Assembly (NCBI RefSeq): GCF_002865645.1
Contig: NW_020194588.1
Span: 1,036,092 to 1,100,091 of the forward strand
DNA: 64,000 nt
Source of the DNA: Hyaloscypha bicolor E
Taxonomy: Eukaryota > Ascomycota > Leotiomycetes > Helotiales > Hyaloscyphaceae
Direction: 5' to 3'
Positions 349-33,295 of this stretch are shown here, piece after piece. Positions within the stretch are counted from its first letter, which is position 1. Every line of letters begins with the position of its first letter. The notes beneath the pieces were generated by a model. The model was given only the letters and a program-made list of their open reading frames with translations, was not told the origin of the DNA and searched no databases. The translations under genes were made by a program, and so were the position numbers.

Positions 349-356
349 GGCCGGTG
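349..356. repeat. 8-bp target site duplication, left copy
   Basis: GGCCGGTG lies directly outside the left terminal inverted repeat. The identical octamer lies directly outside the right one at 19893-19900. An 8-bp duplication is the hallmark of hAT-superfamily integration. Its GC-rich sequence makes a chance match in this AT-rich block unlikely. Confidence 0.9.
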
Positions 357-374
357 CAGTGTGGGCTCCGATAA
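357..374 (+). repeat. hAT left terminal inverted repeat
   Basis: CAGTGTGGGCTCCGATAA is perfectly matched in inverted orientation at the right end. It is GC-richer than the adjoining interior and shows no RIP-type change between the two copies. Confidence 0.9.
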
Positions 375-858
375 ATTATCGATCATAATTATTAATTAGT
401 AATTATTATTAGCTAAGCAATTAATAGTCAATAGATATCGATAATTATTATTAATAAAAGTGGGCCCAGCTATTAAGCGAGTTCCATTACATGAATATCT
501 CGCTTTCTAGTTCAATTATAAACCGATTAGTATATATATTTTAATATAAAAGTAGACTATTATTATTAGTATATTAAATAATTAGATTTGATTTAATTAG
601 ACCCCCCTACTCAAATCAAATTAAGTTAAAATCAAGCTAATTAAATTATACTTAATTATAATTAAAGATAATTAAAGATAATTAATTAGATTTATTACGT
701 GATTATGCATATAACTCTAGAGCTTCGGAAGCCGAGATAAGGCTAAAATAAGATCTGGGCTAGCTATATTCAGTATTACTAAAGGCACTCTTTACTAAAC
801 CAGGCCTAGCGCTAATTAGTAAGCAAAGCTAAAGGCACTAGAACCTCTTTAATTTCCA

Positions 859-973
859 GTATTATAGTAGTAGTAAAGAGCTTGAATTAAGCTAAAGGCT
901 ATCTGCTAGGCTAAGGAAATACTGGCCACATACTAAGTCACGTGCTATAGTATTACGTAGCTGGTATCATATA
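859..973 (-). repeat. Partial TRIM LTR relic
   Basis: This segment is the reverse complement of most of the 131-bp LTR found at 30939-31069. Shared blocks include the run GAGCTTGAATTAAGCTAAAG and an AAGTCACGTG site at 935-944. The outer end on the left is missing or diverged, and no flanking duplication is visible, so it is a fragment. Confidence 0.65.
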
Positions 974-1537
974 ACAAAAACTAGTTTATTATTTTAGATT
1001 TAGACTAATTTTATACTCTTATATATACTTTATAGATTTTATTTATATTTTATTAATATAGCTATTAGTTATTTAATAATCTTTAGAAATGCCTAAGAAA
1101 GTATACTTTTATATTATTATATAATAATTATAATAAAAATTAAGCTAATTAAATTATACTTAATTATAGTTAATTATAATTAATTCTAATTAATTAGCCT
1201 TAACTATTTTTTAATATACTAATTATTATTATATTATTATACTTTTTAACTTTCTATTTAATAATCTATTATATAATATAAACTAGCTAGTATTTAATAT
1301 ATAATACTAAGATTTATATTACTATTTCTTTTAAAAGAATTAAAATTTTCATACTTTCTTTTATTCTCTCTTTAATATATAATAGTACTTTATTTTCTAT
1401 TATTTAAATATAGCTTCTAAATCTGTTTTATTAATCTATTAAGCCTTTACTAATATAAACTTAACTTAATTCAAATCTAATTTCAAATAGAAAGAACTTA
1501 TAAGAACTATTTAAGCTTATATTTATTTCGGATATTA

Positions 1538-1838
1538 TGGGAGGGAAACTGTAATAAGACAAAAACCCATATAAAGTATACCAGAGCGCAAAACGTGACT
1601 TGATAGTAAAATAATAAATCAAAAGCATAAATAGTAAAGCATAAATAGTATATAGTATATAAAAGCTTAATTAATTAAATACTTATAAAGGATTATTCTC
1701 TAAGTCTATAGAAAAACCAGCTTTCTTATATAATTTCCGCAAGTCACGTGCCAAAGGCCACGGCCTTTATTATATGACCTAAACCTCAAAACCGCCAAAA
1801 TAATATGATTTTTAATAAGTATAGCCTGCCATATTATA
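1538..1838 (-). repeat. Gypsy-1 3' LTR
   Basis: This 301-bp repeat aligns without visible gaps to 14378-14678. It starts TGGGAGGG (the other copy starts TGAGAGGG) and ends in TATA, a RIP product of an expected CA end. The differences are nearly all C/T and G/A. It contains the 36-bp palindrome at 1743-1778. Confidence 0.88.
1743..1778. repeat. 36-bp palindrome (in Gypsy-1 3' LTR)
   Basis: The arms are GTCACGTG (left) and TATATGAC (right, RIP-changed CACGTGAC), around the core AAAGGCCACGGCCTTT. It is one of six sites of exactly 36 bp in this window that share this arm-core-arm plan. Confidence 0.8.
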
Positions 1839-1884
1839 TCTAATCCCCCATTTATTTATACTTATCCCCTAAGTACCAAAAATA

Positions 1885-4596
1885 ATAGAAAAATCCTACT
1901 CAGAGTCCGAAATAACGAAATATTCAGGATCCTCCTCTATTAGTTAATCTAATTTCTTTTCCATATACCTAAAATAAGACTTATTACCCTTAAATAGTCT
2001 TATTTCGTACTCCCGAACTTGCTTAAAGGCAATCCGAACCCGCTTAGCCGCATTCTCACGCCAAATCCGATATAGTTCTCTATATTTATTAGCGTTCGCC
2101 TTTAACTATTACTTAATTTCCGCCTTTACTACAGGGTAATAAGGAGGCTTATTATAGCAAATCATATCGTAAATCGCACTAATATACTCTAAACAAATGG
2201 CTCCTTCAAATTTTATATTATCTATAGTATCCTTGAATTAACCTTTAATAGGAGGGGAAAGCTCTAGATAAGAGGCTTTAATAACCTTATAGGAGACTCC
2301 ATTTTCGTATATTCCATTCTTAATAGTAACTAGACTTATTAGAATTATAGTAAAAGGCCTATTAAGTAGCAAATTATTATTAAGCTATCCTTTAACTTAT
2401 ATATTATCCGAGAATTAATACTTTCCCATAATTCCAGACTTATAGATTACCTAGCCAAAGGCATTTATTTATCTAGTTAAATAGACTATACTCGGAGTCT
2501 TTCCTCTTATTACTTTTAGTAAATACTTGCCTAATTCCTTAGCTACTTCCGGCTCAAATTTATTAGAAATAGAGGAGTAATTAATATCTTTAAAGAACTT
2601 CTTACTAAAGGTAGCGGCCTTCTTGCAGTCCGTAAGAAAAATATAGCTAATATTCCGATACTCTTTACTAAGGTAGAATTCGCTACTTAAAGCTTTAGTA
2701 GTAGCCAGATCTTTAGTATTGCCTTCGTACCAATTATAATTAATGTTTCCAGGAGCAAAGTATCGGGCTAGCTAAGGATAAGTAACTAGGTAGACAGGAT
2801 ACTTATTTAATACCTCGTGGAATCCGAGCCATATTAATGGATCTGCTATTAAAAGTTAAGAGGCTAAGATAAAGTAGCTATTACCAAGATCTCTATACTT
2901 TAATATATTATCTTTCCGGAGATAGAACTATAGTATCTCTATTTTTTCTATTAAGAGTTCTCGAATACTAAGCTTCTTAATCCATTTTAGGTAATTCTTC
3001 TTATAAATATGGCTATTTATACCTAGATTAGTAGTACTAGACTCAGGAACAGGAACTATAGTATTGAATTAGAGCTATAAATTTGGGCGGAATTAATTAG
3101 AAATATAGCGCTTGCGTCTATACTTCTTAATTTCCTAGGTCTTAAAGAAGAAATCCCATGTCTCCTTATCTATTCAAGTAACGGAAATATGCTTCTTGCC
3201 TTTAGTGACTTTATAGATCTTAGTAACTAGCTTTAGAGCGTCCTTAATTTCTCGCATATTAATAGAGAGAGCATTAGTAAGTTACTAAATATGTCTTATA
3301 TAGGAAGCTTTAAGGAATTCATTATTAATTCCATAGTATTCCCGCTCATAAATAAGTCTCAAAACACTACTATATACTTCCTTAAAAGTATACTTATTTC
3401 ACCGAGCAAGTATTAGCTTCTATTTAGCTAGTATCTTACAGGTGTACTAAATACCTTTATTAAGTTCTCCGGACTTAATATCCTTAGTCTTTCGCTTCTT
3501 GGTTCTAGATATAGTTATGAGAGTCTTTCTAGATAATATCTTTCCCTTTAGAATAAAGGGTTCCTTATTACTTTCCTCTATTTCACTAACCTTATGCTTG
3601 GTCTAGCACTCAGATCTCTGCTATCTATTAGGAGTCTTAGGCTTAGCTTACTCTCCTTCCTTGCCAGGCTTTTCTTATCTAGTTATACCAGTTCCGCTAG
3701 TCTTACTAATAGTTTTCTTACTAGTAGTTTTCTTACTAGGCTATATCGAATTAGCTCTATTTTTATTAGCTAAATCCAATTAAGTTAAAGCTAAAATTAT
3801 AATAGGGGCCTATTCTTTAGGCTTATCTCGGAAAGCAGGAAAAGGCTCATTACTATAAACTCCCTTAATTAGGATTCCGGAAGTATTAAAGGTATACTAT
3901 CTAGCTTTAAGGTTATTAGCTAATAGTGGCTTAAACTCTAATTCTCCAGGTTCTAATATAGCTTTAGTATGCTTAAGTACCTTGGTAATATCTAATTTAG
4001 TAAATATACTAGTATTTTAATGCTTCTTGTCCTTAATATACTCTAAAATAGCTTTATTAATTAACTAAATAGCTTCGCGTACTAAAGCTTTTGTCTTAAA
4101 GAAAGAATATAACTTCTTATAGATATTCTTGCCAAAGTTATTATAGACATTATTAATATATTAGCTAAAAGCTTTATTATATAGTATAATTCTATTTTAT
4201 TCCTTAGTATTAAGACCATTTACTATAGTCTTAATCTTATTAAGCTTCTCTTATCTGCCTTTGGAAATGCCTTTAATAATATTCTCGAATTCCCTATTAT
4301 TGGCTTAGTAGTTCTTTAGCTTCTCCTTAGTTAATCCTAGTCTAGTTCCGTCTCTAATAAAGGTTTTCTACTTTAAGAGCTCATTATACATGCCGCTTAG
4401 CTTATCTAGGACATTTGTATTAAATTCGGTAATTATAGCTATCTTTTCTAGTATTAGTAGGCCTTCTATAATTACCCAAGCTCCTTTAATACTCTGAACT
4501 TTAATACTATTAATCTATAGGCTTTTAATAATATTGCGGCTTATAAGAACTAGCTACTATGCTTTACTAGCTTAAGAAATCTGTACTTTGGCCATT
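1885..4596 (-). pseudogene. Extra Gypsy-1 ORF in env position, unknown family
   Basis: On the minus strand one reading frame runs from an ATG at 4596 (MAKVQIS) down to about 1885, roughly 900 codons. It is broken mainly by TAG/TAA where Q or W codons are expected. It lies downstream of pol and upstream of the 3' LTR. The N-terminal 350 or so residues are Lys/Glu-rich and look coiled-coil-like. A Ser/Thr/Pro/Lys-rich linker follows. The C-terminal half is globular-looking and has long stretches free of stops, for example a segment ending YFVISDSE near 1920. I see no signal peptide or membrane anchor, so env homology is not supported. I do not recognise the family. It may be a captured host gene or an element-specific protein. 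Confidence 0.6.
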
Positions 4597-6430
4597 TTAT
4601 TATTCTTAATAAGTTATAAAGGTATTATTAGTATAATAGTTATAGGTTATAGAGTTAAAGGTTCTTGAGATTACGAGGATTTCTTTTAAGTATATTCCAA
4701 AATAAAAAGTAAATTAGAATAGTCTTGGATTACGTAAAGGCGTCACGTGTATTCAAGTTTTTCTTTCTTCCTAGTAAGAAAACAAAGCTGAAATAATAGT
4801 ATATGTAATAGGGAAAGTAGGTATAATAATTAGGTATATTTAAGGTAATATAGTTATGAATTAGGAATAATTATAAAAGGTAAAATGTAGAGTTAGGCTT
4901 CTATTACGGAAAAGAATACGAATATATATGCCTAAGGGAATATAATCTAGGAAATAATTAAGGCAGGTTAAACTAAATAGTAATAATAGGGAAATAAGAA
5001 GATAATATAATAGAAATATAAGTATAGTAATAGTATTTAAAGTATTGGAATATAAAAGGAAATAATAAAAATTTCATGATATAGGTATGTCCCGACTTCC
5101 TATTTATTTAGAAATGTCCCTATTAACTCAAAGAATAATATAAAAGAAGAGAAATAATATAGGAAATATATAAAAGATAAGGTATATAAGTATACTAAAG
5201 ATATTAGGAAAACATAAAGTAAGTATTAATAGAAAAGAAGTCAGAATAATAGGATTAAGAAATAACTCAGAATAAGGTATTACTTCTTCCGAAACTAATC
5301 CGTATTTATTTAGTACTTATTAAAGTCGACTTTATATAGTATAAAACTATTTAGTTAGTTAGGACTTTAAAATAATATCCATATTTACAAAGGTAATACT
5401 AAAGGTATCGGGATATATAAAAAGAAAAACTATAAGATAATATAAATGAGGTTTATAATATTATTATTAAGTTTGGAATAGTTAATATTAAAGTTAATAT
5501 AGAATATGGAAAGATTAGATATCCTGAATTAGTATTAAGGATATAATATTAAAGGTGTCTTCTTAATTACTCAGATAATATTTAATAGCAGGGAATAGAT
5601 TAATAGCAAGAAATAGCGAATTATACTAGCTTTTTAAAGAAATAATTAGTTCCTAGTAATGAAATAGTATTATAGTCAGAGAATGAGTTCTATATAAGAG
5701 AAGTTTTCTTATATAGAGATAGGAATACACGATATACTAATCAAGCCTCGGTATTAGTTTTAAGTATAGCCACGGTTATATTAAAGAGAAAATAGGTTTT
5801 CTAGTATAAGATAGGCTTTAAATAGGCAGATCCAGTTTATCTAATATCTAATAAATTCCCAGAATCACATATTATTAAATACTTTCGGAAATAACTATTA
5901 GGTTTAATAAGGTTTTCCCTTTTCTCTTATAGGGCTTCTAGTTTGGCTATTTCGTTTATATATAACTCCTAATTAAGAAGTTTATTTAGATATTATAAGG
6001 AAACTTATAATAGTAGTTCAAGTTAAAGTCAAGATCTATAGATATTATAGTCAAACTTTAGACTAGTATAAGCCGCGAGAATAGCTAGTTAAAAAGGCAA
6101 GTAGAGCTTCTAAAAAGTTTCTAGCTTAATAAAAAATATATAAAAAGGCCCTCTTTTTCCTTCTTTTCTCTTCCTATCTCTAAATATAATTACTATTCAT
6201 ATATTATAATTCGGAATCAAGAGTTTATAAGGTAACCTCTCGACCCCCTATTTATTTTCGTACTAAAAAAAATACTTTATATTTAATTCCCAAGATCTAG
6301 TAATAGAATCTCATATTAAGAATACTATCTAGTAATAGTAATTAGATAATAGTAAGAAATAAGTAATAGCAAAGTTCGTCCAATTTCCAGAATAATAGTC
6401 TAATAATAATATTCTCTAAAGATTATAAAT
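4597..6430. other. Gypsy-1 spacer between pol and extra ORF
   Basis: This 1.8-kb AT-rich stretch is dense in stops in every frame I tried and holds no domain I recognise. It could contain the promoter of the extra ORF or be an older insertion. One CACGTG site survives near 4744 (CGTCACGTGTATT). Confidence 0.4.
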
Positions 6431-6439
6431 AATAGTCGG

Positions 6440-9400
6440 AAAGAAAAATTAAAAGATATATAAAGAATTAAAGGTAATAAGCTTTATTCCAGGTCAAGAA
6501 AAGCTCCCATTATTAGATGCTTCCTCCTAGTTCTCTATAAAAGAGACATACTTTGCTCTCTCTAATTCCGGTAACTCTAGAATACGTATAATAATACCGG
6601 TAGCTTTCTTAATCTCTTAAGTACTATTTCGCTTATAGTACTCTATAACTACTTTCTTTTCTAGTTCTATATCTGTTTTAAAATATTTATTTACAGGTAT
6701 ATACTCGTTATTAACTTTGTCTTTAGGGAAATACCAGAATCCATCCCTTTTAATAAACTATTTGAGTCGATTTCCGGTATATGTCCTTTAAAATATAGTA
6801 CTATTAAGCTCTTCTAGCACGTAGTACCCTTTTAGTTAATCTATATACCTTACTCTATACGGGCCAAGCTAGTAGTATAGCAGCTTCGTATTTCTTGACT
6901 TGTCTTAATTCATTAATTTAATATTATATGCGAGAACCAGATCCTTTTTGGAAATAGGCTTTAAATAAATCTAGTAAGTAGTATTAAATTACTCTTTTCC
7001 CTCTCGGTATTATCTATCCTTCTTTATTCTAGCTTCTTTAATATCTTTATCTCTTATCTATATCTGCTTTATACGTATTTCCAGAAGCATTTCTCTATTA
7101 TAGACTTTATTTTATCCAAGTATTTTCCAGGTTAGAAAGCATATTTCTATAAGTAATATAGCTTCCCTACTATAGACCATATAAAAAAAAGTAAATCTAG
7201 TTAGTTTATATATAGTAACTTAATTAGTAAATAGAACATATAGTAGTAAATCTACCTAAGGCTTCTTTCTACCTATTATAAGTATAATAAGCACTTAAAT
7301 AATTAGTTAATATCCTCTTTTAATTATGCCATTTCCTTTAGAATTATAGGCCAAAATAATAATTCTATTAATTCCTAGCTTATTAAGTTCTTGAATTACT
7401 ACTTCTTTAAATTCCGATCCGCTATCTACCTTAAGCTATCTAAATAAACCATGCCTATAAATAATTTCTTCCTAAATAAACTTAGTAATCTTCTTACTAG
7501 TTAGGTTTTTCAAAGATCTAGCTTTAACTTATCCTGAGAAGTTATCTCTAGTAATAACTAATAAGTTATATCCTTTATAGTCTAGTAGTTTAACTATATT
7601 AATCCCAAGGTAATAAAAAAAAATATAGCTTTTATTAGATATAAAGCTTCTTCTTATCTTCTTTTACTCTTATACTAATAGACTTTATAGGCGTTTATAT
7701 ACTTCCGTATATAGTTATAGTAGCCTTCCTAGTAATAGTAGCTAGCCACTAAATAAAAAGTGCTTTCCCTTCCGGTATATCTAATCTTATTATATAGCTC
7801 CTTAATAATAATCTTCTTTTACTCTTAATTATTAATAATAAGTCAAGGTAAGTACGCTTTAAATATAACTCTCTATAGTAATTAATCTCTTATACTATAA
7901 TTTAAAGCTTCTCTACTTAACTTTCGAAACTCGGCTCTAGATATTTCTTCTAGTCTAGAGAGTATTATAAGGTATTATATAATATTCTAGTATTATTCGG
8001 AATAGCTATTATCTAAAAAGTCTAGTAAAATAGTTAGGTTATTAAGTAAAGTATGGGAATTAGTATTATTATTTACTATTTTACTAGAAGTTATATATAA
8101 AAGGCCGCAGCCTTTGCCATATAACTTCCGGATTTTATTATTTTTTAATATTGCCAATTTGCTTCTAGATATAGTAAGGCTTTAATTATTAATCTCTAGT
8201 AACTAAATACTACTATCCAAATATCTAGTAAAGGTCTTAGGAATCTAATTCCTTAAAATAATATCACGTGACTAAACCAGAACTACTTCCTTTATCCGAA
8301 TTTCTTACCTAATAGGCACTATTCTAATAGTATTAAGTTCTATTACTAATCATTTATTAATATCCTCGTTATCTTTAGTATTGCCTTCTTATTATAAGTG
8401 TCTTAATAATCTATTAGTAGTAGTATACTTAATTCCTTTAATATACTTGACTTTAAAGTCAAATAGTTGAATTTATACTAGCTAGCGAGTAACCAAAGCT
8501 CTAGGAAGATCCATAGCCGCTTTACTTAGCTATATAACAAGTATATTAGCGTTTAGTTTAAGGATAAAGTAAACTTCATATAGCCAGAATTATACTTTTT
8601 ATAGATACTTTACTAGCCCTCAGTATTCTCTCTTAGTAATATCATATTTCTGTTTAGTATTATTCCAGATTTCAGACTTATATTATATAACTTTCTTTTT
8701 TCCTTTATTATTATATTAACCCAGAGTTCTATCTTATCTATTCAGGCTAGTATTTACTACTAATATAATTATTCCCTAACCTTCTAATAAATTATAGTAT
8801 AACTTATAGAGTATTAGAGTAGTAATAAGCTTTTCTTAAAGAATTCGCATAGCTTGCTTTTATTTATTATTCTAGTTCCACATTATACCTTTCCTTATTA
8901 AGTAATAAATAGGTTTAGTAATAATTATAAAGCCTTTAATTTAAATATGGTAGTAAATAATAATTTCAATAAATGCCTTGCTTTTAGTTATACTATTATA
9001 ACGCTCCTATCTCAAGATCTTAGTAATTTCTGAGCTTAAAGGGCTTTTTCCAAGTACTTTATAAATAAAGCTAATAATAACTATACTATTATAATAGAAC
9101 TATGATTTTTCTCTAATACTAGCTCTGGCTTATTTAACTCTATTTAAGGTTATATCTAGGTTTTAAAGATATTCGAATATAAAACACTAAATTCCAGGTA
9201 AAATAAGCTGCCTATTATAGTCTATATAAGGCCTCTTGACTCTAATATTATTAATAAATAATATAGTAATTTTGGGAAATAAATTCTCTAGAATAGTTAT
9301 AATAACTTATATAAACTATATAACGGAATTAGTAGCTCTCTAAGATAGTATAGTTATTCTTAATAGCCCCAGAGGTATTATAAATACAGTCAAATCTCTA

Positions 9401-12400
9401 CTATAAGAATCTAGTATAAGTTAATTATATCTAGAAAAGAAATTAATTAGAGAAATATAAGTATATCTAGCAAATTCCTCCGAGATCTCATTAGTAGACG
9501 GGGATAGGTTAGTGTCTTATAGGATTACTAAATTTATCTTTATAGCGGCATTAATTAGTCTATAAGTCCTAGTAACCTTCTTTATAACTAAGAACTATGA
9601 ATTTCGGTAAGGTCTATTATATTTCTCAAGAACTCTATAATCTAAGCATTCTAATAGCATTTTCACTATTACTAGTACTAGAGCTTTGGGACATGGGAAA
9701 TTCTTCTCTTGCTAGGCCTTATACTTAATAGTCTTAATTAGAATAGGTAGGCTAATATCCTTATAAACTTTTCCTACTTCTTTCTAATTAAATATAATTA
9801 TACCTTCTTAATTAATTATTAATTCTTGGAATATAGCCAGTTTCTCTTCCCAGAGCCAGTTACTAATATCTAATTATTTAAGGCATTCCGGAATAAGTCA
9901 TAAATCTCTTAAAATAGCTAATATCCTTAGTAAAAAATAATTCTTATATTTCCCAGTATACTCCTATAGGTATTCTCTAGCTTTGGATCTCTCAAACTAG
10001 TCCGGACATCTACTAGGGCCTTTTCTAGTTCTATTATTAGTATCTACTAGTCAAATCTTCTTATTCTTTATTTTATATACTCCCGTAACTAGAAATGAAC
10101 TATAGTTATTATCTTTTTCTTTAAGAGCCATAGCCATTTTCTCTAGTATTCTTTTCGTCTAATCTCCGGAATTTATAACCTTCCTACTTAGCTCTTTCCT
10201 AGTTAGGTATAAAGAGCGCCTTTTTGTCCGGTATTTTAATATATCTTTCTTAAGCTCTCACATATTCTAGAATCCTTCCTAGTCTTGGGTTCTATATTTC
10301 TTAGCTTCGGAAATATATTCCTTTATTATTAGGAAATACTACTTTACTTCTTTTTCAGAAATATTTTTACTTAATACCCCTTTTACTTCTTTTTCTATTA
10401 AATCCGGAACTACTCTTAATAATACTCTAATTAGAGCTTTTTCTGCTTTAGTTTCTCCAAAAATATTATTAATTTCCTAAACTCCTAAACCTAAAATAAA
10501 AGAATCTATAGGAAATCCCGGTATCTTCCTATTTCCCCTAATATTACTACCGGTTATAATACCAGGCTCTATTTTCCCTCTTTACCTTCCGTTTCCTACT
10601 TCGTATTACTCAATTTCTTTACTCTAGGAGCTTAATACTCTTGAACTATTACTTTCTTCTATTTCCCGGTATTCTTTAAAAATAGAATAATTATAATAGT
10701 ACAGGTATTCTAATTATCTTTAGGGTTAGTAAACCTTCTATTTCACGATTTATTACTCCTATATATAATATTTATCTTTATTTTTACCAAGAATAATTAA
10801 CTAAGCAGGATCTTTAGAGCTTTTTTAACTAGGAAAAACGTATCTTTATATCCTATTCTATCTATAATCTTAGCTCTAAGCTTTACTATTCCTGTAAATC
10901 CAAATTCTGCCCTAGTAATAATAGATATTTAATAATCTATAGTATTATATACTACTTTACTAATATTTCTAGAGATCTTTTTAGGGAGAATATTAACTTT
11001 AGCTCTAGTATTAATTATTCCTTTATATTTAATACTTCCTTAAGGTCCTCGAAATACGAATTGGAGGCATAGAGATTACACGATATATTTATAAGCTAGT
11101 AATATCCGAATATTAATACTATTGCCTTTAAATTAAATAATTCTATTAGTATTAGGTACCTGAGCTAGTATTTCTAATCCCTTAAATATTTTATTTATTA
11201 TATGAGCCATAGCCGCTAGCTCCGCAGATCTTCTAGTATATCTAACTATACTTAATATAATAGTATTTCTCATTTATAAAATAGTAAGGTAGGGAGTATT
11301 ATCCTTAATTCATTAGTTCTAAAGTATAATAGCTAGATCCGGCGTTTTTAAGGCATTAATAAGTATTCTTATTCCTTTCTAAGTCTTTAGAAGTGGAATA
11401 GTTACTTTCTTTAGTAATCTTATTAGAATTTCGTTAATTTTAGAAGTCCTATACTTATTATAGTCAAGAATATACTAAGTTCCCAATTCGTCTTATTTAT
11501 TCCCAGAAGCATTAATATCCATATCCTTAGCTAGGCTATTTCCTTATCTATTACTTCTTAGAGTAGTATTTTTCTAGCCTCTTATATGGGATAGCTTCTC
11601 TTCTACTCTAGCTCGTCTTTAGAAAACCTCTTTAGCTATTTCTACCTCTTTTCCCTTTTTTCTTAATAAGAAACCTATTATAGTATTAATAGAAACGCTA
11701 TTTATAGCTAAATCTTAGTACTATTTATTAATTCCAGAACCTAAAGTATTAGTAATTCCAATGCAATTTCCTCTAAGGCAAAGTAGCTATTTAGATTTCC
11801 TAGATATAACTTACTTGCTTTTATATATAGATTCCGGTTAGCTAGTTCCCTTTTCTCTTTCTTGCCTAGTAAACTAGGTATTTCCTATTAATCTCTGGAT
11901 ATTTTTGGGTCAAGTATTTAAGTTATAGTTAAATTCTTTTCCTCGGACTTGGGAAATAATTTAGTTAAACTACTAGCGCTTACTAGTAAGGAAAAAAGAA
12001 ATGCTTTCTTATCTAGGCTTAAATAGCCTTTTATACTATCTTTTATTAAATTAGTAAGTATATCCATAATTTATAAGCTCTTCTATTAGTAGGTAATAGA
12101 ACTAAGAGATATAGACATATTCTGGGTTAATGTTATTATCCTTGTCCCTGCTATAGTACCTATAGCAAATTCGTTCTCTCGGTTCTGGGTTTATACTATA
12201 GGCCGCATTAACTTGAGTAGTATTTTCTAATTATGCTTAAGACTAACTTCCCCCAGAATATGGTTATTCAGATTCTCTACTTATTTTAGCTCGACTATTA
12301 TAGCTACTATAGCATTCTCTATAACCTCTACTATGACTTCTAGTATATCCTTCCCAAAGACCCGAATTATACTTACTAGGTTATTAATATTATTATACTT

Positions 12401-13580
12401 ATTATAGTTAACTAGATTATATAAACAAGCTACGGATATTCTCCCGAATTATAATAGTGGCTATATTAAGTTATCTCTATAGGTTCTCTTGAGTTACGAT
12501 AATAATAAATAGTTTTTCTAGACTCCTTACTAGCTAGTTAATATTATCTCCCTTGGGTTTACTACTTTTAGTGAGTTTCGCATAATTAGCTACAGGTTAG
12601 GTTCTCTTCTTACTTATACTTATAATAGTTTCAAGAAGCATAGTAAAAGGGACCGGTAAAAAGTAATTATCTTCTAGTTTAGGAACTATATTATAAACTA
12701 CTATATCTAAGTATTCTTATCTAAGTCTAGATATATCTGGGTTATTAGTAATATTAAAACGGCATTTCTTCTCTTTATACTAATAGAATATTACTACTTT
12801 CTCATATATCTTACTATATTTATAGGTAGAAACATTTATAGGCTCAAAGTTCGTATTCTTAAGAATATAATCCCTTACTAGAATAGATAATTCTCTCATG
12901 AATTCTCGATACTAAGTAATTTCATTTATCTTTTTCCTTTTTAGTAATTCCTTTAATATTCTATTAAATATATTAATATAAGACTTGGAAGAGATTTCTT
13001 TATTCTGGGCTTATATAATAATCTAATTAAGAAAGTCGCGGCTGATTTTGAGTGTTTCCCAGTTATACTCTCGGAATTCCTTTAGTAAGGCCTTAAAGAA
13101 CTTGGTTTCCTAGTAATCTCCTGGGTTATTAGTATAATACTCTAGTATAGCCTTAATCTAATCCTTGTAAATAGGAGAAATATAATGAATAATTCTCTCT
13201 CTTTTAATATTATTAGGAATATAATAGTCCTTATATATATCCGTATATTATTCCAAGAATATAGAGATATTACTTCCCTAAAACCATAGTACTTCAGGAG
13301 CTCCCGCAAGCGGCAGGTTTAAACCCGGCACTAGTACGTACTTATTCTTAGCCATAATAATCTCAATAATTTCTTTTATAATTAATTATAGAGTTTCCGT
13401 ACCTAAGACTTCTACTAATAAGGTTCCTAAAAGGCTAACTTCCCGTTTAAACATGTCTTTTGGTTTGGGAACCGGGATTAGAGAGAAACCGGTTAATAAT
13501 AACGGACATAATCTAGGTTTGAGTTTTGGTATTAGTAATAATATAGTAATAGTTTTTCTAGTCTTATTTCTATTACTCAT
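6440..13580 (-). pseudogene. Gypsy-1 gag-pol, RIP-degraded
   Basis: The minus-strand frame starts at 13580 (MSNRNKTRKT). A gag capsid core follows at about 13340-12900, with readable pieces such as GAPEVLWFQGSN and ALLKEFREYN. The second half of reverse transcriptase is readable at about 9280-9130 (FINNIRVK, then LPGI). The integrase zinc-finger region and core lie at about 7850-7300: a first Asp in ITRDNFSG near 7560, a second in VDSGSEF near 7410, and the region of the catalytic Glu at 7319-7321. A GPY/F module follows at 6880-6760 (LGPYRVRYI, TGNRLKQF). No chromodomain was seen. Stops are mostly TAG/TAA at Q/W positions. This is Ty3/Gypsy by domain order, and it is certainly non-functional. 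Confidence 0.82.
8090..8125. repeat. 36-bp palindrome inside Gypsy-1 pol
   Basis: The arms are RIP-changed (GTTATATA and CATATAAC) around the core AAAGGCCGCAGCCTTT. It lies between the RNase H region and the integrase zinc finger. The minus-strand pol frame passes straight through it, because 36 bp is 12 codons, reading KLYGKGCGLLYITS without a stop. Confidence 0.75.
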
Positions 13581-14377
13581 GCTTTCTTTTCTGCTTTATT
13601 AGCTTAATGCCTATAGTATTTTCTCTTAATTTCGCCAAACTAGGCATATTTTATAGTACTATTAATAAACATAATAAAAATAATAATAATAAAAACGATT
13701 TCTCTAATTCCGCTATTTTCTCTAATTTCTCTGAATTTTCCTTATTATTTCTACTTAGTAACCTCCTCTTTCTCTAGAGGCTTCTCTAATTTATCTATAT
13801 AATTTCTTATTTCCGATTTCCTTTTAATTCTTTCCGATTTCTGTTTACTATCTTACTTAAAATTAAGGGCATTCCCTATTTTGGGTATTCTCTTCGAACT
13901 TAGGAGCAAGCTTTACTACTAAGATTAAAGCTACTTTAATTCCGACCTTTATTATAACTAAAAATAATATATAAATTAATAGTATAATCTTATTTCCGTG
14001 TACTAAAGTCTATTTCTAACTAAGATCTAACTCATACTATCTTAGTATAATATTTCCTATTCTATTTCCTTTGCTTTTTTTCCTTTTATAATTAGCTTCT
14101 ATTTCCACTATCCCTGTATACTATACTAGTAACCACATCTTATAGCTAACTCGTATCCAAGTTACTAGGTACGTCGGAAATTAACGTGAAATACTGAGAT
14201 TAATGCTCATATATTCTTAATATTTCGGCCTTAGGCTTAAGGTATTATAATAGCCCTTTTTCTCCCCTAACTTGCTAAGCTAATAATTCGCCTTATAGAT
14301 ATCCCTCAGAACTTCATAAGAGTATTACCTTAACTACGAAGTTTCTATACTCCCTGTATTACTTATTATAAAATATG

Positions 14378-14678
14378 TGAGAGGGAAACTATAATAAGAC
14401 AAAAACCTATATAAAGTATACTAGAGTATAAAACGTGACTTAATAGTAAAATAACAAATCAAAAGCATAAATAGTAAAGCATAAATAGTATATAGTATGC
14501 AAAAGCTTAATTAATTAAATACTTATAAAGAATTATTCTCTAAATCTATAGAAAAACCAGCTTTCTTATGTGATTTCCGCAAGTCACGTACAAAAGGCCG
14601 CGGCCTTTGCCATATAACCTAAACCTCAAAACCGCCAAAATAATATAATTTTTAATGAGTACGGCCTGCCATACTATA
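14378..14678 (-). repeat. Gypsy-1 5' LTR
   Basis: Partner of 1538-1838 with identical length (301 bp). It keeps a less mutated palindrome at 14583-14618 than the other LTR. The gag start lies 0.8 kb inside on the minus strand. Confidence 0.88.
14583..14618. repeat. 36-bp palindrome (in Gypsy-1 5' LTR)
   Basis: The left arm is GTCACGTA, the core AAAGGCCGCGGCCTTT is perfect, and the right arm is CATATAAC. It occupies the same LTR position as 1743-1778. Confidence 0.85.
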
Positions 14679-15342
14679 ATATCCAAATATAAAAGAACTA
14701 TTTAAATACTATTATTATTTTCTTTATAAAAAGAAAAATCTAGTATTTATTTATTTGACTTTAGTCTTTACTAATTAATATAATTATCTCAAGTTAGTAT
14801 ATAATATTACTATTAGAAATAGATTAGAAATTAGCCTACTTTAATTAAAAGTAATTAATTAGTTATAATAGCTTTATTTAAAAATAAAGTTATCTGGCCA
14901 AATAACTGAAATTAATATATATATCTTTTAATAATACTTTAATCGGGCAGTAATTTATAAAGCTTTAATTTTATTAATTATTATCTATAATTTATCTTTT
15001 TAAATAGTTAAATAGCCCGAATTTCATATCTTTTATTAAATACTTAATCCAGAATCTCAGTTCTTTCTTTCTATAACTTACTTTTATATAAAAAAAAAGT
15101 TTAGAAAATATTAGATTAGCTTAAAGAATATTATATAACGAAAACTCTAATTTATAGTTTCAAGTATTTATCTTGCTTTTAATATCTGGACTTTTCTATA
15201 AAAAAAAATTTTTTTAGGTATTATTATATATTTTATTAAATAATAAAATAAGAATTATATAAAGGCCTTTCTAGCTCTTTATATAATACTAGATTATTTA
15301 GGAAAAAACTAATTTACGGTTTTATAACCTGTACTTTAAAAC
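14679..15342 (+). other. Outer hAT sequence right of the Gypsy insertion
   Basis: This is very AT-rich sequence that should hold the N-terminal part of the hAT transposase, since the recognisable core begins at 15343. Stops and apparent frame shifts are too frequent for me to trace a frame. Confidence 0.4.
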
Positions 15343-15720
15343 TATAGTATTACTAAATAACTTAAAGCTATTATTAGTAATAATATTAGTATAAATAGTA
15401 TATTATATTAAGCTATTTAGGCTTATTTATTAAAAGAAAAAAAATTAGAATAAGATATTTTATAATAATAGATTTATTATCTAGAATATATTATTAACCT
15501 TTTTATATAAGCCTTTTTATTTTATAATATCTTTATAAATAGAGAATTAGAAGTATTTAATAAATAAGAGAACTTAAGAGATTTAGAAGCTCTATTAAAT
15601 AATAAGAAAAAAAAATGCGACTTTTAGAACTATTAGGCTAGCTTTATAATATTATTATATATATTTATTATTTTTTTAGTTATATTACCAGATTTAAAGC
15701 TTTTACTAAAAGAATAATTT
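15343..15720 (+). pseudogene. hAT transposase core, RIP-degraded
   Basis: In the + frame starting at 15343 I read IISNNISINSI, matching the hAT block around the second catalytic Asp (DNASSND-like, with D changed to N as RIP would do). About 35 residues later comes YYLEYIINLFI followed by AFLF, matching the conserved RCLGHIINL..AFLFG block of fungal hAT transposases. After one frame change near 15620, LYNIIIYI and FKAFTKRI match the L-H-N-I-V..YI and R-x-x-A-F blocks. The N-terminal part should lie between the Gypsy insertion at 14678 and this point, and the C-terminal part between 15720 and about 17120, but I could not align either. The order and spacing of these blocks make the family call fairly safe, and it agrees with the TIRs and the 8-bp duplication. 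Confidence 0.7.
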
Positions 15721-16008
15721 CTTTTAATAATTAAATATAATAAAATAGCTAATATATAATACTTAATATTACTTTCTAGTAATATACTTATTTTAATATC
15801 TATTATAAGAAATATTTTATAGACCTGAAATTAGATTATTTTAGTCTAGAAAACTAGAAAAGGCTTTAGATAATTTCTATTTTTCTTAAATTATTTTATA
15901 GAGCTATTTTTGAAATTTAAAAAAATATTATAATTATTAATTAAGTATTTTTTATAATAGATATTTTAATTCAAGTATTTAATAGATTATTAGTAAATAA
16001 TAATTTTT

Positions 16009-16104
16009 ATACTAATCTTTATACTAATCTTTATACTAATCTTTATACTAATCTTTATACTAATCTTTATACTAATCTTTATACTAATCTTTATATTAAT
16101 TTTT
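16009..16104 (+). repeat. 12-bp minisatellite, 7 perfect units plus 1 degenerate
   Basis: The unit ATACTAATCTTT repeats seven times without a mismatch (16009-16092), followed by one degenerate unit (ATATTAATTTTT). The perfect identity contrasts with the mutated surroundings and suggests recent expansion. It lies within the outer hAT element. Confidence 0.95.
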
Positions 16105-16269
16105 ATTACTTAATTTAATAAAACTAATTATAGTATAATAGAATATATATATAAATAATAAAGACTTTTATATTCGAATTTAAAAAAAAAATAAGGGGTT
16201 TTTAATATATATTACTATAAGTTTAATAATATATCTTTTTATATTATTACTTTTATATTTCATTCGAAT

Positions 16270-17120
16270 TACTATATAAAATATATTAGAATTAATTAGA
16301 AGAAAAAATGAATTTAGCTTATTTTAACTAAAATTAAAAAGCTTTAGAAGAAATATTAAGATTAGATATCTATTTCTAATAGTTTAATATTAGTTAAAGA
16401 AATTAAATAGCTAATAGAAAGAGAACTAGACGATTTTAATAGAATTACTTAGATATTAGAAAAATATATATAGCTAGTAAGTTAAAATAAATACAAGAAT
16501 TATTATTAGAAAAAGTTATATAATATTAGGGACTTATTTATACTTTAATAATAATATTAAGATATATAAAAAAGATATTAGCTAAAGCTTTTATTTATAG
16601 AAATTAATATTCTCTTAATTCTAGTAATAAATATTAAAGTAAAATAAATCTTTTTAGATACTTATTATATAATATTATAAGATAGAACTTAAATAATAAT
16701 TAAGATTTTAGAAATAGTAAAATATTTGAAATATTAGAAAAAAAAATAGAATTTTAAATATTTTTATTAATATTAATAAAAAATAATAAAATTAGTATAA
16801 AAATTAGTATAATTATAATTGTTTTCTTTATAATTTATAATTACTAGTATCTTAAAGATATAATATCTAGCTAATTACTACTTTTATTAAAGAAGTTTCT
16901 CAAATATTATTAAATAGTTATAATATCTTCTATAACTTATAATTTAGAATTAGATAGAAAAATATATTAGTATAAGCTATTCTTTAGTTTCTTTCTAATA
17001 TATACTAATAGTATTATTACTTTATAGCCTTTTTAAGATTTAATAGAAAAGTAAAAACTAGTAGTATTTAATTTAGCCTCGAATTCTAGCTACTAAATAA
17101 TAGAACTAGGAAAGTTAATT
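16270..17120 (+). pseudogene. Coding-like stretch of the outer hAT element
   Basis: One + frame contains long runs broken mostly by TAA/TAG at likely Q codons. It includes a relatively clean segment near 17060-17120 (VVFNLASNSSY, ELGKL). It may be the C-terminal half of the transposase or a second gene. I could not find the hAT dimerisation motif in it. Confidence 0.3.
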
Positions 17121-17374
17121 TATTTATTATTTCCTTATATTTAATGAGTTAAGTTTCTTTAAATAGTCTTTTTACCTAATATAAAGAATTTAGTAAAATT
17201 AATAAATATAATATAGTTATTATATAATAATTAGTAATTAATATAAAAATAAATAAAATTTATATCTGCTATATAATAATCTAATTTTATAGAATAAGAA
17301 TTTCTTCTTTTTTTACTATATTTCCTACTATATTATAAACTTAATATATTTGTATTTCTATTTTAGTTAGTTTT

Positions 17375-17693
17375 ATACTAATCTTTATACTAACTCAAAA
17401 AGAGATTATATATTTTAGTTAAAGCTCTTTATATTCTATTAGCCTTTTCTTTTATTTTATTATCTGAAATTTATTTAATCTCTTTCTTTTAATTAAGCTT
17501 TTCCTTAGTTTTCTATATTTCCTTAAACTATATATTATTCTCGGAGTTATATTTAATATCTTTTTATATCGGGTTACTATTATTTCAAGCTATATATAAG
17601 CTACTATATTTACTATAGTTAAATAATTATTTATTTAATTTCTAATTCTTTTTTTATTCTTTTCTAAAGCCAGATTAGTATAAAGATTAATAT
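17375..17693. repeat. Inverted pair of the minisatellite motif
   Basis: A 21-bp stretch at 17375-17395, ATACTAATCTTT followed by ATACTAACT, recurs in inverted orientation at about 17672-17693 (AGATTAGTATAAAGATTAAT). They enclose about 280 bp of T-rich sequence. Another inverted copy lies at about 19714-19730. This could be a small palindromic insertion or relocated minisatellite units. Confidence 0.6.
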
Positions 17694-18060
17694 AGAAATA
17701 TTCTGAAAATATCTTTTTAATTTAATACTTATAGTAAAGTACTTTTATATATTATTAAGCTTATTATCTTATATTTTATTATTATAATTATATCTTAATC
17801 TATTACCTTTATTTTTTAATCTTAATATAAATAAAGTCTTTTATAAAAGCTTTATTATATTTATATACTTTTATAATATTTAGGTTTTAAAACAAATCTA
17901 TTAGTACTTTTATTTTATAAATAATAGTATAAATAGATCTAATAGAAGAGGCTAGTTAAGATATTATATTAATACCTAATATACTAATATTAGAGTTATT
18001 TTTGGCTTAAAATAGCTGAAATATAAAGAATATATTCTGGCTACTATTCTATAATATTAT

Positions 18061-18142
18061 AATTAATATAAAAAGTAGAACTATTTCTATAATTAACTTA
18101 TTATATAATATATACTCTTTAGCTCTATCTCTATTTATAATA
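18061..18142 (+). repeat. 82-bp direct repeat, copy 1
   Basis: It aligns with 18439-18520, with differences that are mainly C/T. It could be the left end of a very small LTR-like unit (about 460 bp overall) or a local duplication. No TG...CA ends or flanking duplications are clear. Confidence 0.7.
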
Positions 18143-18438
18143 TATTTCCCAGAGAACTAATATAATATTAAGCCTAGTTCTCTATCTAATTAATGCAATC
18201 TCGCTCTCTTTATTTTATTACCTAAACTAATTAAGCTCTGAAATAAGTCAGGCTACTCGCTTCTTAATAGCTCTAATATTATATTTCCAAGAATCTGTAT
18301 TTTTTAGTGAGTTTACTTAAGGCAAGCCTTTAACTAAGCTTTTACTTTTATATTAACTATTAATAATAGAGTACCGAAATTATATTAAATATAAGGTAAA
18401 ACTTGTAATCGTTATATTATAGTATAAACCGGGCTTAT

Positions 18439-18520
18439 AACTAATATAAAAAGTAGAACTACTTTTATAATTAACTTATTATATAATATATATTCTTTAG
18501 TTCTATTTCTATTTATAATA
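18439..18520 (+). repeat. 82-bp direct repeat, copy 2
   Basis: Second copy of the repeat at 18061-18142, including the shared block TAATTAACTTATTATATAAT. The 296 bp between the copies are less AT-rich and hold no frame I recognise. Confidence 0.7.
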
Positions 18521-18779
18521 ATAATTAATATATAAATTAATATAATATAAATATAAACTTATCTCAGGCTCTAGAAATAATTTATTAATAATTAATAATA
18601 TTTTATAATTACTAATATATTTGATATATTAATTATAGTCTATTATTATAGAATATATTATAAAAATAATTTATATAGAAATTAGTAAATTAATTAGTAT
18701 ATTAGAATACTAACTTATAGATTATAATATAGAATTATATAATAGTATAGTTAAGTAATTAAAAAGAGATTAAAAGGTA

Positions 18780-18804
18780 AATAAAATAAAATAAAATAAA
18801 ATAA
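18780..18804 (+). repeat. ATAAA microsatellite
   Basis: Five tandem copies of a 5-bp ATAAA unit in the AT-rich interior of the hAT element, about 200 bp upstream of the histone-like gene. Confidence 0.8.
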
Positions 18805-19003
18805 TTTACTTTTAAGATATATAAAAAAAATTTTAAACTATTATCTTATTTTTCTCTATTACTTTACTTTAGCTAATACTCTTCTTTTAACTATATTACT
18901 TTAATTCCTTAATTAATTCTTTCTATAATATATCTCTTGCTTTATATTAATTACTTTACTAATTAAGATATAGTAATTATAATCTCTAGTTAATTATTTA
19001 ATT

Positions 19004-19551
19004 ATAGTATAAACTAAGTAAACTAATAGCAAATATTTTATTTCTAGAAAAACTTCTATAAATAAGGCTCTAAAAAAACACTTAATAGAAAAGGCTATAT
19101 TACTACTATTATATAAATAAAAAGAAAATATAGGTTTAGATCTAGTAATTAGTTAATTAGTAGAAATATTAGTATATTTATTAACTGAATTTATAGCTAA
19201 GGCCTTTCAAGAAATTAAAAAATATTAGAAGAATACTAAGTTATTAATTCTAAAGATACTATTTTAATAATTAGTAAAGGAAATTCTGGCTCAAGAAAGT
19301 AAATAAGATAAATATATTTAAGCTTCGGCTTTATATGCTTTATAAGAGTTTATAAAGGCGCTTCTTATTATAAAGTTTGAATATAAGTTATTTTTCTTAA
19401 TTATATTAATCTAATTCTAATAATAAATCTTATAGCTATTTATATAAAGCAAGTTATTATCTAGAAAAAGAATATAAAGCTAGTCTAATAAATGAGATTA
19501 AGAATAATGGGCATTAGTAAGGTTAGCAAATACCTTGTAATAGTACTATAG
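19004..19551 (+). pseudogene. Histone H3-family gene carried in the hAT element, RIP-broken
   Basis: The frame begins at 19004 with ATA, a RIP product of ATG. It then reads (stops shown as *) V*TK*T, matching the H3 start ARTKQT with Lys4. After six extra residues come SRKTSINKALKKHL and IEKA, aligning with the H3 tail around Lys9, Lys14, Lys18 and Lys23. A linker about 13 residues longer than in H3 follows, then the fold: QEIKKY*KNTKLLI (H3 REIRRYQKSTELLI), F**LVKEI (FQRLVREI), ASALYAL*E, and LIAIYIKQVII*KKNIKLV (LCAIHAKRVTIMPKDIQLA). The last block is in another frame, after a 44-nt stretch from 19382. That stretch starts like a mutated GTAAGT donor and may be a short intron. The frame stays fairly open to a TAA at 19723, so a C-terminal extension is possible. 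It lies about 320 bp inside the right TIR and on the same strand as the transposase. H3 versus CenH3 cannot be settled. Confidence 0.8.
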
Positions 19552-19874
19552 GATAGTTAGTTTACTTGGGTTACTAGTAAAGTAACTAGGTCAGATATTA
19601 GGGAATTAACCTTTATATTTAAGGCAAAGCAGTTAGCTAGCCATTAGATTAATAAAGTAATAACTCAAATTATTACTTTTTTAATATATCTCAAATTAGT
19701 TATATTCTTTAAAGAACTAGTATAAAGATTAATTAATTAATTAATTGGAACAGAGAGCAGGAGGGGCAGATTCTGCCGGGCCCCTCATTGCCTAGACCGA
19801 TAATTATCGCTAATTATCGATAATTATCGATTATTGACAAATTAGCGCGATTATCTAATTGTCGCTTATCGAGC

Positions 19875-19892
19875 TTATCGGAGCCCACACTG
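19875..19892 (-). repeat. hAT right terminal inverted repeat
   Basis: Perfect inverted copy of 357-374. Inside it, 19797-19880 carries repeated CGATAATTATCG-type motifs, likely subterminal binding sites. Confidence 0.9.
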
Positions 19893-19900
19893 GGCCGGTG
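19893..19900. repeat. 8-bp target site duplication, right copy
   Basis: GGCCGGTG, identical to 349-356. Joining the flanks across the insertion restores continuous base-balanced sequence. Confidence 0.9.
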
Positions 19901-31661: not shown

Positions 31662-33295
31662 TATTATATTTTCTTTTAGAATTAACTCGTTTTTTAATTA
31701 ATATTTTATTATTCTAGCTAATTTAGTTTTTTTATTTTTATAAATTTAGATATTAATATTTTTAAAATAACTTTTAGCTTAATTAATAATAATAATAAGC
31801 TTTTTTTTAGTTTTATAAAAAGCTTTTCTATTATTCTTTTTTTTTCTTTTTAATTTAAATATAAAGCTTTATTATATTTATAAATAAGCTCTTTTTATAT
31901 AAGCTTTTATAAAACATTATTTTTTAATTTTATTTTTTATAAAGTTTTATTTCAAGAATCTAATATTTTATTAGAATAAATAAATAATAAAAAGAAAAAA
32001 TATAAGCTATTTTTTATTTTAATTTCTTTAATTAATCTTTTTCTTTTTTTATATAATTATATTATTTTTAATTCTAGTTTTATAATTAATAAATTATATA
32101 ATTAGTTATATAATTTTATATTATAAATATAATTTAATTAATAAACTAGTTTATATTAGATTTAGTAAATTTAGGAATTATATATTAATATTATAATATT
32201 ATAATATTTATTTCTAAATAATAATAATTTTATATATTATTAATAAACTAAAAATTAGAATTATTAAAAGTATTTTTAATTATATATTTTTATATTATTT
32301 ATATATAAATAAAAAAGAAATTATAAAAAAAAGAAATTTATATTATATAAATAGTTTTAATTATTATAATTAATTTATAATTTTTATAAATATAATTATA
32401 TATTTATTAATAAAATAACTAATATAAATTCCTAATTTATTTATATTTAAAACATTTTTTCTTTTTATAATATAAAATTTCTTTAAAATATTTTAATATT
32501 TCCGAAATTATATATATAATTAATTTTATTTTACTTATATAAAATATTTTATAATTTTATATTTAAAAACTAAACTAAACTAATTAATTAAAAAAATAGA
32601 TTTAAAAAAGATTTAATATAATTATATTAAATATATTATTAAATTTATATAATAAATATATATAATAATATATAAATAAATAAATATTAAATATTATAGA
32701 TCTAGTTTTCTGTTTTAGATAAAGCTTATAATTAAAATTATATTTCTTAATTAAATATTAAAAAATATATATAAAGAAATATTTCTAGTTTTAGAAAAAG
32801 ATATTAATTAGTTTTTTATTAGAATTAATTCTGGAAATTAGTTATATTTATAAATATTATTTTATAATTTATTTATTTTAATTATTTTATTATTAAATAT
32901 CTTATATTCTAATTAATTTAATTTCTAAAAAATAGTTTATTATAAAATAAATAAATTATTAACTAAAAAAATACTTATATTATTATTAAAATAATTTAAC
33001 TAAATAGTTAGAAAAGTATTTAATTAAATACTTTTTATATTATCTAATTAGAAAAAGAAAATAGAATTGAGATATTTCTAGAATTAGTTAATAATATAAT
33101 AATAATAATAAAGAAATTAGTAATAATATATTATTATATTATTAAATTAGAAATAGAAATATAATAAAAAAACTATTTAAAAAAACTAAAATAATATAAA
33201 AATAATAGAATTATTTAAGTTATAAATATAATAAAGATTATATATTATATTTTTTATTTTAAAAATATAATTAGAAATATCTAGAAATATAAAAA
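31662..33295. other. Extremely AT-rich stretch, unidentified
   Basis: Almost pure A/T with stops in all frames and homopolymer runs. It is probably a RIP-exhausted repeat between TRIM-1 and the Copia element. No LTR, TIR or domain could be recognised. Confidence 0.5.

What the first reader, a model, noticed from the sequence alone, without database searches (positions are those of the whole stretch)
19004..19725. Histone H3-family gene carried inside a hAT DNA transposon
Seen: about 320 bp inside the right inverted repeat, on the transposase strand, is a frame aligning with nearly the whole of histone H3. It has the TKQT start, the ARKS/GGKAPRKQL/TKA tail blocks, REIRRYQKSTELLI, FQRLVREI, GALQEA and LCAIHAKRVTIMPKDIQLA, all recognisable after RIP-type changes. 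Inference: the element acquired an H3 gene as cargo. RIP acts on duplicated DNA, so the H3 copy was probably multiplied with the transposon. A transposon-encoded H3 could alter chromatin at its own loci or escape silencing. I know of no described hAT element carrying a core histone. Alternatively, an H3 gene or pseudogene was trapped by chance in one copy.
Basis: partly seen in the sequence, partly recalled or inferred. Interest (0 to 1): 0.88.

Follow-up and report, generated by a model that had tools for sequence, protein, structure and literature searches.

The report
Histone-H3 gene inside fungal jumping gene
A fungal DNA transposon carries its own unusual histone-H3 gene, multiplied along with it and later ruined by repeat-targeted mutation; transposons of this kind were already known from other fungi, but this gene belongs to a distinct, apparently intron-bearing H3-like branch shared with other fungi of the same order.

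Summary
Confirmed: an H3-like gene (three exons from 19004) lies inside a DNA transposon, on the transposase strand. The window copy is a whole hAT-type element, 357-19892, with an exact 8-bp target duplication, interrupted by a 13.1-kb LTR retrotransposon and two short inserts. At least 28 places in this fungal genome hold the H3 segment, each with the same transposase (26 at 2.4-3.0 kb, two about 10 kb away), and 257 of 259 two-state variable columns are transitions (RIP-type). So the gene was amplified with the element, not trapped once.

Seemingly new: a Helotiales-like host, and a gene that is neither canonical H3 nor CenH3. It groups with stop-free Hyaloscypha proteins sharing a C-terminal insert and IPK for IRK; its apparent introns differ from those of the host H3 gene, which disfavours recent host capture or an intronless retrocopy.

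Function is unproven. Exons 2 and 3 cannot be joined in frame in 25 of 27 copies, so the amplified gene may already have been damaged. Kinship with the Pyrenophora gene could not be tested.

The parts
349..356 (.). left target-site duplication GGCCGGTG
   Evidence: read; identical to 19893-19900
357..374 (+). left TIR CAGTGTGGGCTCCGATAA, 5' end of the hAT element
357..19892 (+). whole hAT-type element with nested insertions (L039 and L041 hold uninterrupted copies of about 5.5 kb, e.g. L041 1330-6863)
577..1214 (.). about 640-bp insertion in this copy, absent from L041
   Evidence: alignment gap
1409..1535 (+). start of transposase exon 1, interrupted by the retrotransposon
   Evidence: mapped by hand from L041 2017; coordinates approximate
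1538..14677 (.). LTR retrotransposon nested in the transposase gene; LTRs 1538-1837 and 14378-14677
   Evidence: direct repeats of 300 nt, 91% identical; element coordinates 811-813 on both sides
14680..16010 (+). rest of transposase exon 1 (RIP-damaged)
   Evidence: close matches at 30 places, 28 of them with H3; translations; end approximate
16110..16740 (+). transposase C-terminal part; weak Dimer_Tnp_hAT match in the better copy L039
   Evidence: E 8.7e-4, 19.5 bits, below the 21.4 cut-off; window coordinates mapped by hand, approximate
17345..17981 (-). candidate central ORF on the minus strand (tentative)
   Evidence: longest open frame in L039 (87 codons; an 86-codon plus-strand frame is nearly as long); stop control only weakly in favour; coordinates approximate
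17999..18513 (.). about 510-bp insertion in this copy
19004..19147 (+). H3L exon 1 (N-terminal tail; TKQT, SRK, GKAPRK blocks in better copies)
19148..19196 (+). apparent intron 1, 49 nt (GTTAGT in some copies, CTAAC, TAG)
   Evidence: read from the alignment; no transcript evidence
19197..19381 (+). H3L exon 2 (alphaN, alpha1, alpha2)
   Evidence: window 19199-19384, E 6.6e-7
19382..19418 (+). apparent intron 2; no in-frame GT-AG join to exon 3
19419..19560 (+). H3L exon 3 (alpha3 and lineage-specific C-terminus); end approximate
   Evidence: window 19420-19539, E 9.0e-4
19875..19892 (-). right TIR (TTATCGGAGCCCACACTG)
19893..19900 (.). right target-site duplication GGCCGGTG

Best explanation
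A complete but dead hAT-type DNA transposon whose normal gene content includes a histone-H3-like gene (H3L). Shown: TIRs, 8-bp target duplications, transposase and H3L between the same ends, at least 28 such places, and RIP-type decay of the copies. Inferred: an ancestor of the element took up an H3-type gene with introns, not the present host H3 gene and not an mRNA copy; it diverged into a separate H3L type, also found in Hyaloscypha; transposase moved the whole unit; near-identical copies arose; RIP then mutated them. An undamaged H3L should still form a histone fold and keep residues aligned with K4, K9, K14 and K18 while losing the K27 context and R63; its likeliest role, if any, is as a nucleosome component altering chromatin on or near element DNA. 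That last step is a guess.
For: 28 H3 places (all 32 first-look candidates scored). Of 30 places with a close transposase match (84-90%), 28 are these same places on the same strand: 26 with a gap of 2.4-3.0 kb, C17 and C55 about 10 kb apart. TSDs: window exact. Of 20 further copies: 12 exact, 5 with 1-2 transitions, 2 not matching, 1 with its 5' end outside the fetched stretch. Of seven copies: L041, L043, L045 exact, L040 with two transitions, L039 a 7-bp match, L042 and L044 not readable. Best H3L relatives: Hyaloscypha P0155 and P0156 (255 matches, 120 listed). Over the fold L032, L030 and L026 are 72, 69 and 66% identical to P0156, against 56, 55 and 57% to host H3 and 57, 57 and 58% to host CenH3. 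Tree: 11 H3L-type sequences separate from 31 others with support 100. Host H3 introns follow K9 and L103; apparent H3L introns lie near G44 and E105. AlphaFold of P0155 gives four H3-like helices.
Against: No in-frame GT-AG join of exons 2 and 3 in 25 of 27 copies within the stretch searched; the two exceptions (L023, L035) carry other exon-2 indels. The stop-precursor test did not single out the H3 frame from control frames. Transversions between the most diverged copy L044 and the others show no third-position bias (codon positions 1/2/3: exon 1 5/7/3, exon 2 3/5/4, exon 3 2/0/0, transposase 15/15/10), so no selection on H3L within this genome is shown. Only 40 of 107 first-look candidates were scored, so H3-less relatives may have been missed. 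Whether the Hyaloscypha genes sit in a transposon is unknown. The hAT domain match is below its cut-off. RIP-shared changes inflate the grouping of the copies in the tree.
Confidence: 0.78

Rival explanations
1. Passive cargo: an H3-type gene was caught by the element, never did anything for it, was already broken at the last burst and only hitch-hiked.
For: Broken exon 2-exon 3 frame in 25 of 27 copies; no sign of selection within the genome; 22 short elements of 346-1261 bp with exact TIRs at both ends, none at a place matched by the H3 or transposase searches; the three read (L074-L076) hold neither gene.
Against: H3L-type reading frames in Hyaloscypha are free of stops and share derived features with this element's gene. 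Of 30 close transposase places 28 have H3L; one of the others is 3'-truncated, the other a 312-bp match.
Confidence: 0.4
2. Recent independent capture of the host's own H3 gene or transcript, as proposed for Pseudocercospora and relatives.
For: That model is published for Mycosphaerellaceae (PMC6710886); the N-terminal blocks resemble canonical H3.
Against: Apparent introns at other places than in the host gene; L032 is 72% identical to a Hyaloscypha H3L but 56% to host H3; tree split with support 100.
Confidence: 0.06
3. One old H3L-bearing hAT lineage runs through Leotiomycetes and Dothideomycetes, including the Pyrenophora element, by descent or horizontal transfer.
For: Size 5.53 against about 5.6 kb; transposase, a (here tentative) central ORF and H3L between TIRs; an insertion in the H3 tail; neither H3 nor CenH3; nearest named canonical H3s from yeasts here, from Candida there.
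Confidence: 0.3

Closest known systems
H3L transduplication element of Pyrenophora tritici-repentis (Manning et al. 2013, PMC3538342; abstract passages and section 20 part 1 seen)
   Same: hAT transposase, central ORF and H3-like gene between TIRs, about 5.6 kb; H3L is neither H3 nor CenH3 and has insertions in its N-terminal tail
   Different: Copies there are nearly identical, with ESTs, and little RIP; a Dothideomycete; sequence kinship not tested here; strand of its central ORF not stated in what I read
Histone-H3-carrying hAT of Pseudocercospora fijiensis and five relatives (Dhillon et al. 2019, PMC6710886; abstract, Results, Methods and part 1 of the Discussion read)
   Same: hAT with 8-bp TSD, H3-like gene, copies RIPed and in AT-rich blocks, intact host H3 elsewhere
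   Different: About 9.5 kb in P. fijiensis with one or two H3 copies, read there as an intronless retrocopy of host H3; here 5.5 kb, one copy, two apparent introns, separate H3L type
Repeat R25 of Stagonospora (Phaeosphaeria) nodorum (Hane and Oliver 2010, PMC3017866; passages seen)
   Same: RIPed repeat with H3 similarity and weak DNA-transposon similarity
   Different: Reclassified there as probably an endogenous gene region; no hAT structure in the passages seen
Histone H3.2-like protein of Hyaloscypha finlandica (P0155) and partial histone-fold protein of Hyaloscypha sp. PMI_1271 (P0156)
   Same: C-terminal KLVQRMRLGMMGIS, IPK in place of IRK, longer loop 1; tail insert with NGKR in P0155

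Membership tests
hAT superfamily | 8-bp target-site duplication | tested here: met
   window exact; 17 of the 19 further copies with both ends readable, exact (12) or with 1-2 transitions (5)
hAT superfamily | short terminal inverted repeats | tested here: met
   CAGTGTGGGCTCCGATAA at both ends
hAT superfamily | transposase with hAT C-terminal dimerisation domain | tested here: inconclusive
   Dimer_Tnp_hAT E 8.7e-4, 19.5 bits, below the 21.4 cut-off, in L039 only; L041 and two distant relatives gave nothing; the N-terminal part gave only a sub-threshold PRP38 match
hAT superfamily | catalytic DDE triad | not tested
   copies too RIP-damaged; not attempted
Histone H3 family | H3 histone fold | tested here: met
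   Pfam Histone E 8.7e-25, 8 of 8 chosen copies; PDB Histone H3 chains E 3.7e-34
Canonical histone H3 | near-invariant tail and core | tested here: not met
   55-57% to host H3 over the fold in three copies, tail insertion, C-terminal insertion
CenH3 | groups with host CenH3 | tested here: not met
   57-58% identity in three copies; host CenH3 falls with the 31 other sequences
H3-bearing hAT (transduplication) elements | transposase and H3-like gene between the same TIRs, multiplied together | tested here: met
   28 of 28 H3 places have the transposase; 28 of 30 close transposase places have H3 (40 of 107 candidates scored)
Pyrenophora H3L element lineage | H3L, transposase and central ORF homologous by tree | not testable with these tools
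   its sequences were not among the listed results of the searches run

The most novel reading that the evidence does not exclude
H3L is not repeated accidental cargo but an old, retained gene of one hAT lineage spread over at least Leotiomycetes and Dothideomycetes: a transposon-owned H3 variant with altered tail (K4, K9, K14, K18 kept, K27 context lost), R63 lost and a C-terminal insert, which enters nucleosomes and blunts heterochromatin-based silencing of the element.
Probability: 0.15. Interest if true: 0.85.

Novelty: new member of a known kind. Interest (0 to 1): 0.42.

Why it matters
It extends H3-bearing hAT elements from Dothideomycetes to a Helotiales-like host and indicates that here the captured gene is a distinct, apparently intron-bearing H3 type shared with Hyaloscypha. 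That questions whether each case is a separate recent retrocopy of the host's H3. If the lineage proves common, it would be a transposon that has kept its own core-histone variant, a directly testable case of a mobile element meddling with chromatin.

Tried and rejected
Rejected: H3 trapped by chance in one copy (28 places). Rejected: element limited to 14680-19892; its 5' part lies at 357-1535 beyond a nested retrotransposon. H3-less copies: of 30 close transposase places two lack H3; C46 (L053) is 3'-truncated at element position 3226 and C25 is a 312-bp match that was not examined; only 40 of 107 first-look candidates were scored. Short TIR-only elements: 3 of 22 read, neither gene.

Inconclusive: transversion codon-position test; stop-precursor test, whose control frames behave similarly; central ORF Pfam search, no match. 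Distant hAT relatives (64-76% DNA identity): 4 of 10 fetched, no H3 by tblastn at E up to 1. L046, a single-copy H3-like locus, shows no convincing transposase match (best E 3.9) and no TIR. The three protein searches did not list the Pyrenophora gene. One search ended in a script error after printing the values cited; the rest was redone. Paper searches: (15 of 26 listed); no listed title or abstract start reports such an element in Leotiomycetes; only the three cited papers were opened.

Full report
WHAT IS THERE. The window is part of an 82-Mb fungal genome. Its DBP6-like helicase has as best relative with a named organism Stipitochalara longipes (68%; an unnamed ENA protein is 90%), Helotiales, so the host is probably a Leotiomycete; this rests on one gene plus the nearest H3L relatives. 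At 19004 begins a gene that reads as histone H3 in three exons. In the window copy exons 2 and 3 match a Hyaloscypha protein at E 6.6e-7 and 9.0e-4; the window copy is absent from the 21 Pfam hits because it is heavily damaged. Read from better copies, the gene gives Pfam Histone E 8.7e-25 (L030); 8 of 8 chosen copies, of 27 aligned, pass.

THE ELEMENT. L039 and L041 hold uninterrupted copies of about 5.5 kb with TIRs CAGTGTGGGCTCCGATAA and target duplications. The window copy runs from 357 to 19892 with GGCCGGTG on both sides. It is split by a 13.1-kb LTR retrotransposon (1538-14677, LTRs 300 nt, 91% identical) inside the transposase gene, and by inserts of about 640 and 510 bp. Of 20 further copies whose 5' side was fetched, 12 have exact 8-bp duplications, 5 differ by 1-2 transitions, 2 do not match (L058, L065) and in one (L062) the 5' end lay outside the stretch (one search shows an exact TIR just beyond it). 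Of seven copies, three are exact, L040 has two transitions, L039 only a 7-bp match, and L042 and L044 could not be read. The transposase C-terminus matches Dimer_Tnp_hAT only weakly (19.5 bits, cut-off 21.4; 18.9 bits, where L041 and two distant relatives gave nothing).

COPIES. An 881-bp query gives 36 matches: 28 H3-bearing places (three C73 matches are one place) and six short terminal, partial or self-inverted matches. A 1271-bp transposase query (40 of 107 candidates scored) gives close matches (84-90%) at 30 places. 28 of these are the H3 places, same strand, 26 with a gap of 2.4-3.0 kb, C17 and C55 about 10 kb apart; C55 has identical duplications at both ends, C17 does not. The other two are C46 (3'-truncated) and a 312-bp match in C25. 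Among 26 copies (L035 left out), 257 of 259 two-state variable columns of the aligned 3' part are transitions, so the copies were close to identical when RIP-type mutation struck; C/T sites favour a following A (65 of 124), while G/A sites follow A (48) as often as T (43). Exact TIRs also mark 22 short inward-facing pairs of 346-1261 bp (counted; whole-pattern counts with up to 3 mismatches 76 and 86, control 15 and 16). Three were read: G+C 40-49%, exact 8-bp duplications, no transposase or H3L. So short derivatives moved too, and H3L is not needed within the moved DNA.

WHAT THE H3 IS. It is neither host H3 nor host CenH3. Over the fold, copies L032, L030 and L026 are 72, 69 and 66% identical to P0156 (Hyaloscypha sp. 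PMI_1271, partial), 61, 59 and 56% to P0155 (H. finlandica), 56, 55 and 57% to host H3 and 57, 57 and 58% to host CenH3; P0156 itself is 62% identical to host H3. Shared features: a tail insert holding NGKR (P0155 and the element; P0156 lacks its N-terminus), IPK in place of IRK, a loop 1 longer by 1 to 4 residues, and KLVQRMRLG(M/I)MGIS before the end; a four-residue gap after K18 is also seen in the otherwise canonical P0157. A tree of 42 sequences on 99 columns separates the 11 H3L-type sequences (8 of the 27 copies, P0155, P0156, L046) from 31 others with ultrafast bootstrap 100. It is unrooted, L046 has a very long branch and RIP-shared changes strengthen the grouping of the copies. The nearest named canonical H3s are from yeasts. 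P0155 is predicted to keep four H3-like helices (pLDDT 81-94 from alpha1 on, 72-74 in alphaN, mean 67.5 and pTM 0.43 for the whole protein).

INTRONS. By reading, intron 1 (49 nt; GTTAGT in some copies, CTAAC, TAG) restores RPG-T-KAL as in P0155; P0156, deposited as partial, starts exactly at KAL. The host H3 gene has introns after K9 and L103 instead. So the element gene is probably neither a fresh copy of the host locus nor an intronless retrocopy; no transcript was available. Intron 2 is a problem: no GT-AG pair in the stretch searched joins exons 2 and 3 in frame in 25 of 27 copies; the exceptions L023 and L035 have other indels in exon 2. The master copy of this burst may thus have had an H3L lacking helix 3.

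TESTS THAT DID NOT DECIDE. Transversions between L044 and the others are not concentrated in third positions. In-frame stops are mostly of RIP type (13 positions with a stop in two or more copies, 10 with a precursor codon in another copy, 3 without; four further positions with a stop in one copy are not explained so), but control frames are often similar, so this does not prove a once-intact frame. The minus-strand central ORF is tentative.

KNOWN BEFORE. Manning et al. 2013 (PMC3538342) describe a 5.6-kb hAT in Pyrenophora tritici-repentis with transposase, a central ORF and an H3-like gene that is neither H3 nor CenH3 and has tail insertions. Dhillon et al. 2019 (PMC6710886) describe H3 in hAT elements of six Mycosphaerellaceae (about 9.5 kb in P. 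fijiensis), with 135 to 784 H3-like copies, RIPed, read as an intronless retrocopy. Hane and Oliver 2010 (PMC3017866) mention H3 in repeat R25. The present element is a member of this known kind in a new host class. Its likeness to the Pyrenophora element suggests one old lineage, which I could not test.

HOW IT MOST LIKELY WORKS. Shown: TIRs, target duplications, joint multiplication and RIP-type decay. Inferred: transposase acted on the TIRs and carried H3L as an internal gene. Speculative: H3L entered nucleosomes and affected silencing. The passive-cargo reading is at least as likely as that last step.

Noticed in passing
window 1538-14677: A 13.1-kb LTR retrotransposon with 300-nt LTRs (91% identical) sits inside the transposase gene of the hAT element. 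Described only.
   Followed up: partly
L074, L075, L076 and 19 further TIR pairs in G000: Short elements of 346-1261 bp with exact TIRs at both ends; the three read are not AT-rich (G+C 40-49%) and have exact 8-bp duplications: probably recent non-autonomous derivatives.
   Followed up: partly
L046 about 4425-4595 (C21:1287924-1288094): Single-copy H3L-like segment without stops over the matched exon, in normal-G+C DNA, with no convincing hAT match or TIR nearby; apparent frameshifts elsewhere. A relic or a domesticated H3L.
   Followed up: partly
G000, whole genome: 112 Dimer_Tnp_hAT matches, many without a stop inside the domain match, so other hAT families look better preserved than this one.
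   Followed up: no
proteins P0015 and P0017-P0033: 18 similar divergent H3 proteins (148-265 aa in those read) on single ENA contigs, like a dispersed H3 family in some other organism; 10 of 18 were read. Possibly another mobile H3.
   Followed up: no
window 32001-33000 and 49001-52000: Extremely AT-rich blocks, G+C 6-10%.
   Followed up: no
window 33809-34303 (-): 164-aa open frame that looks like a Copia-type RNase H end (recalled, no search run).
   Followed up: no
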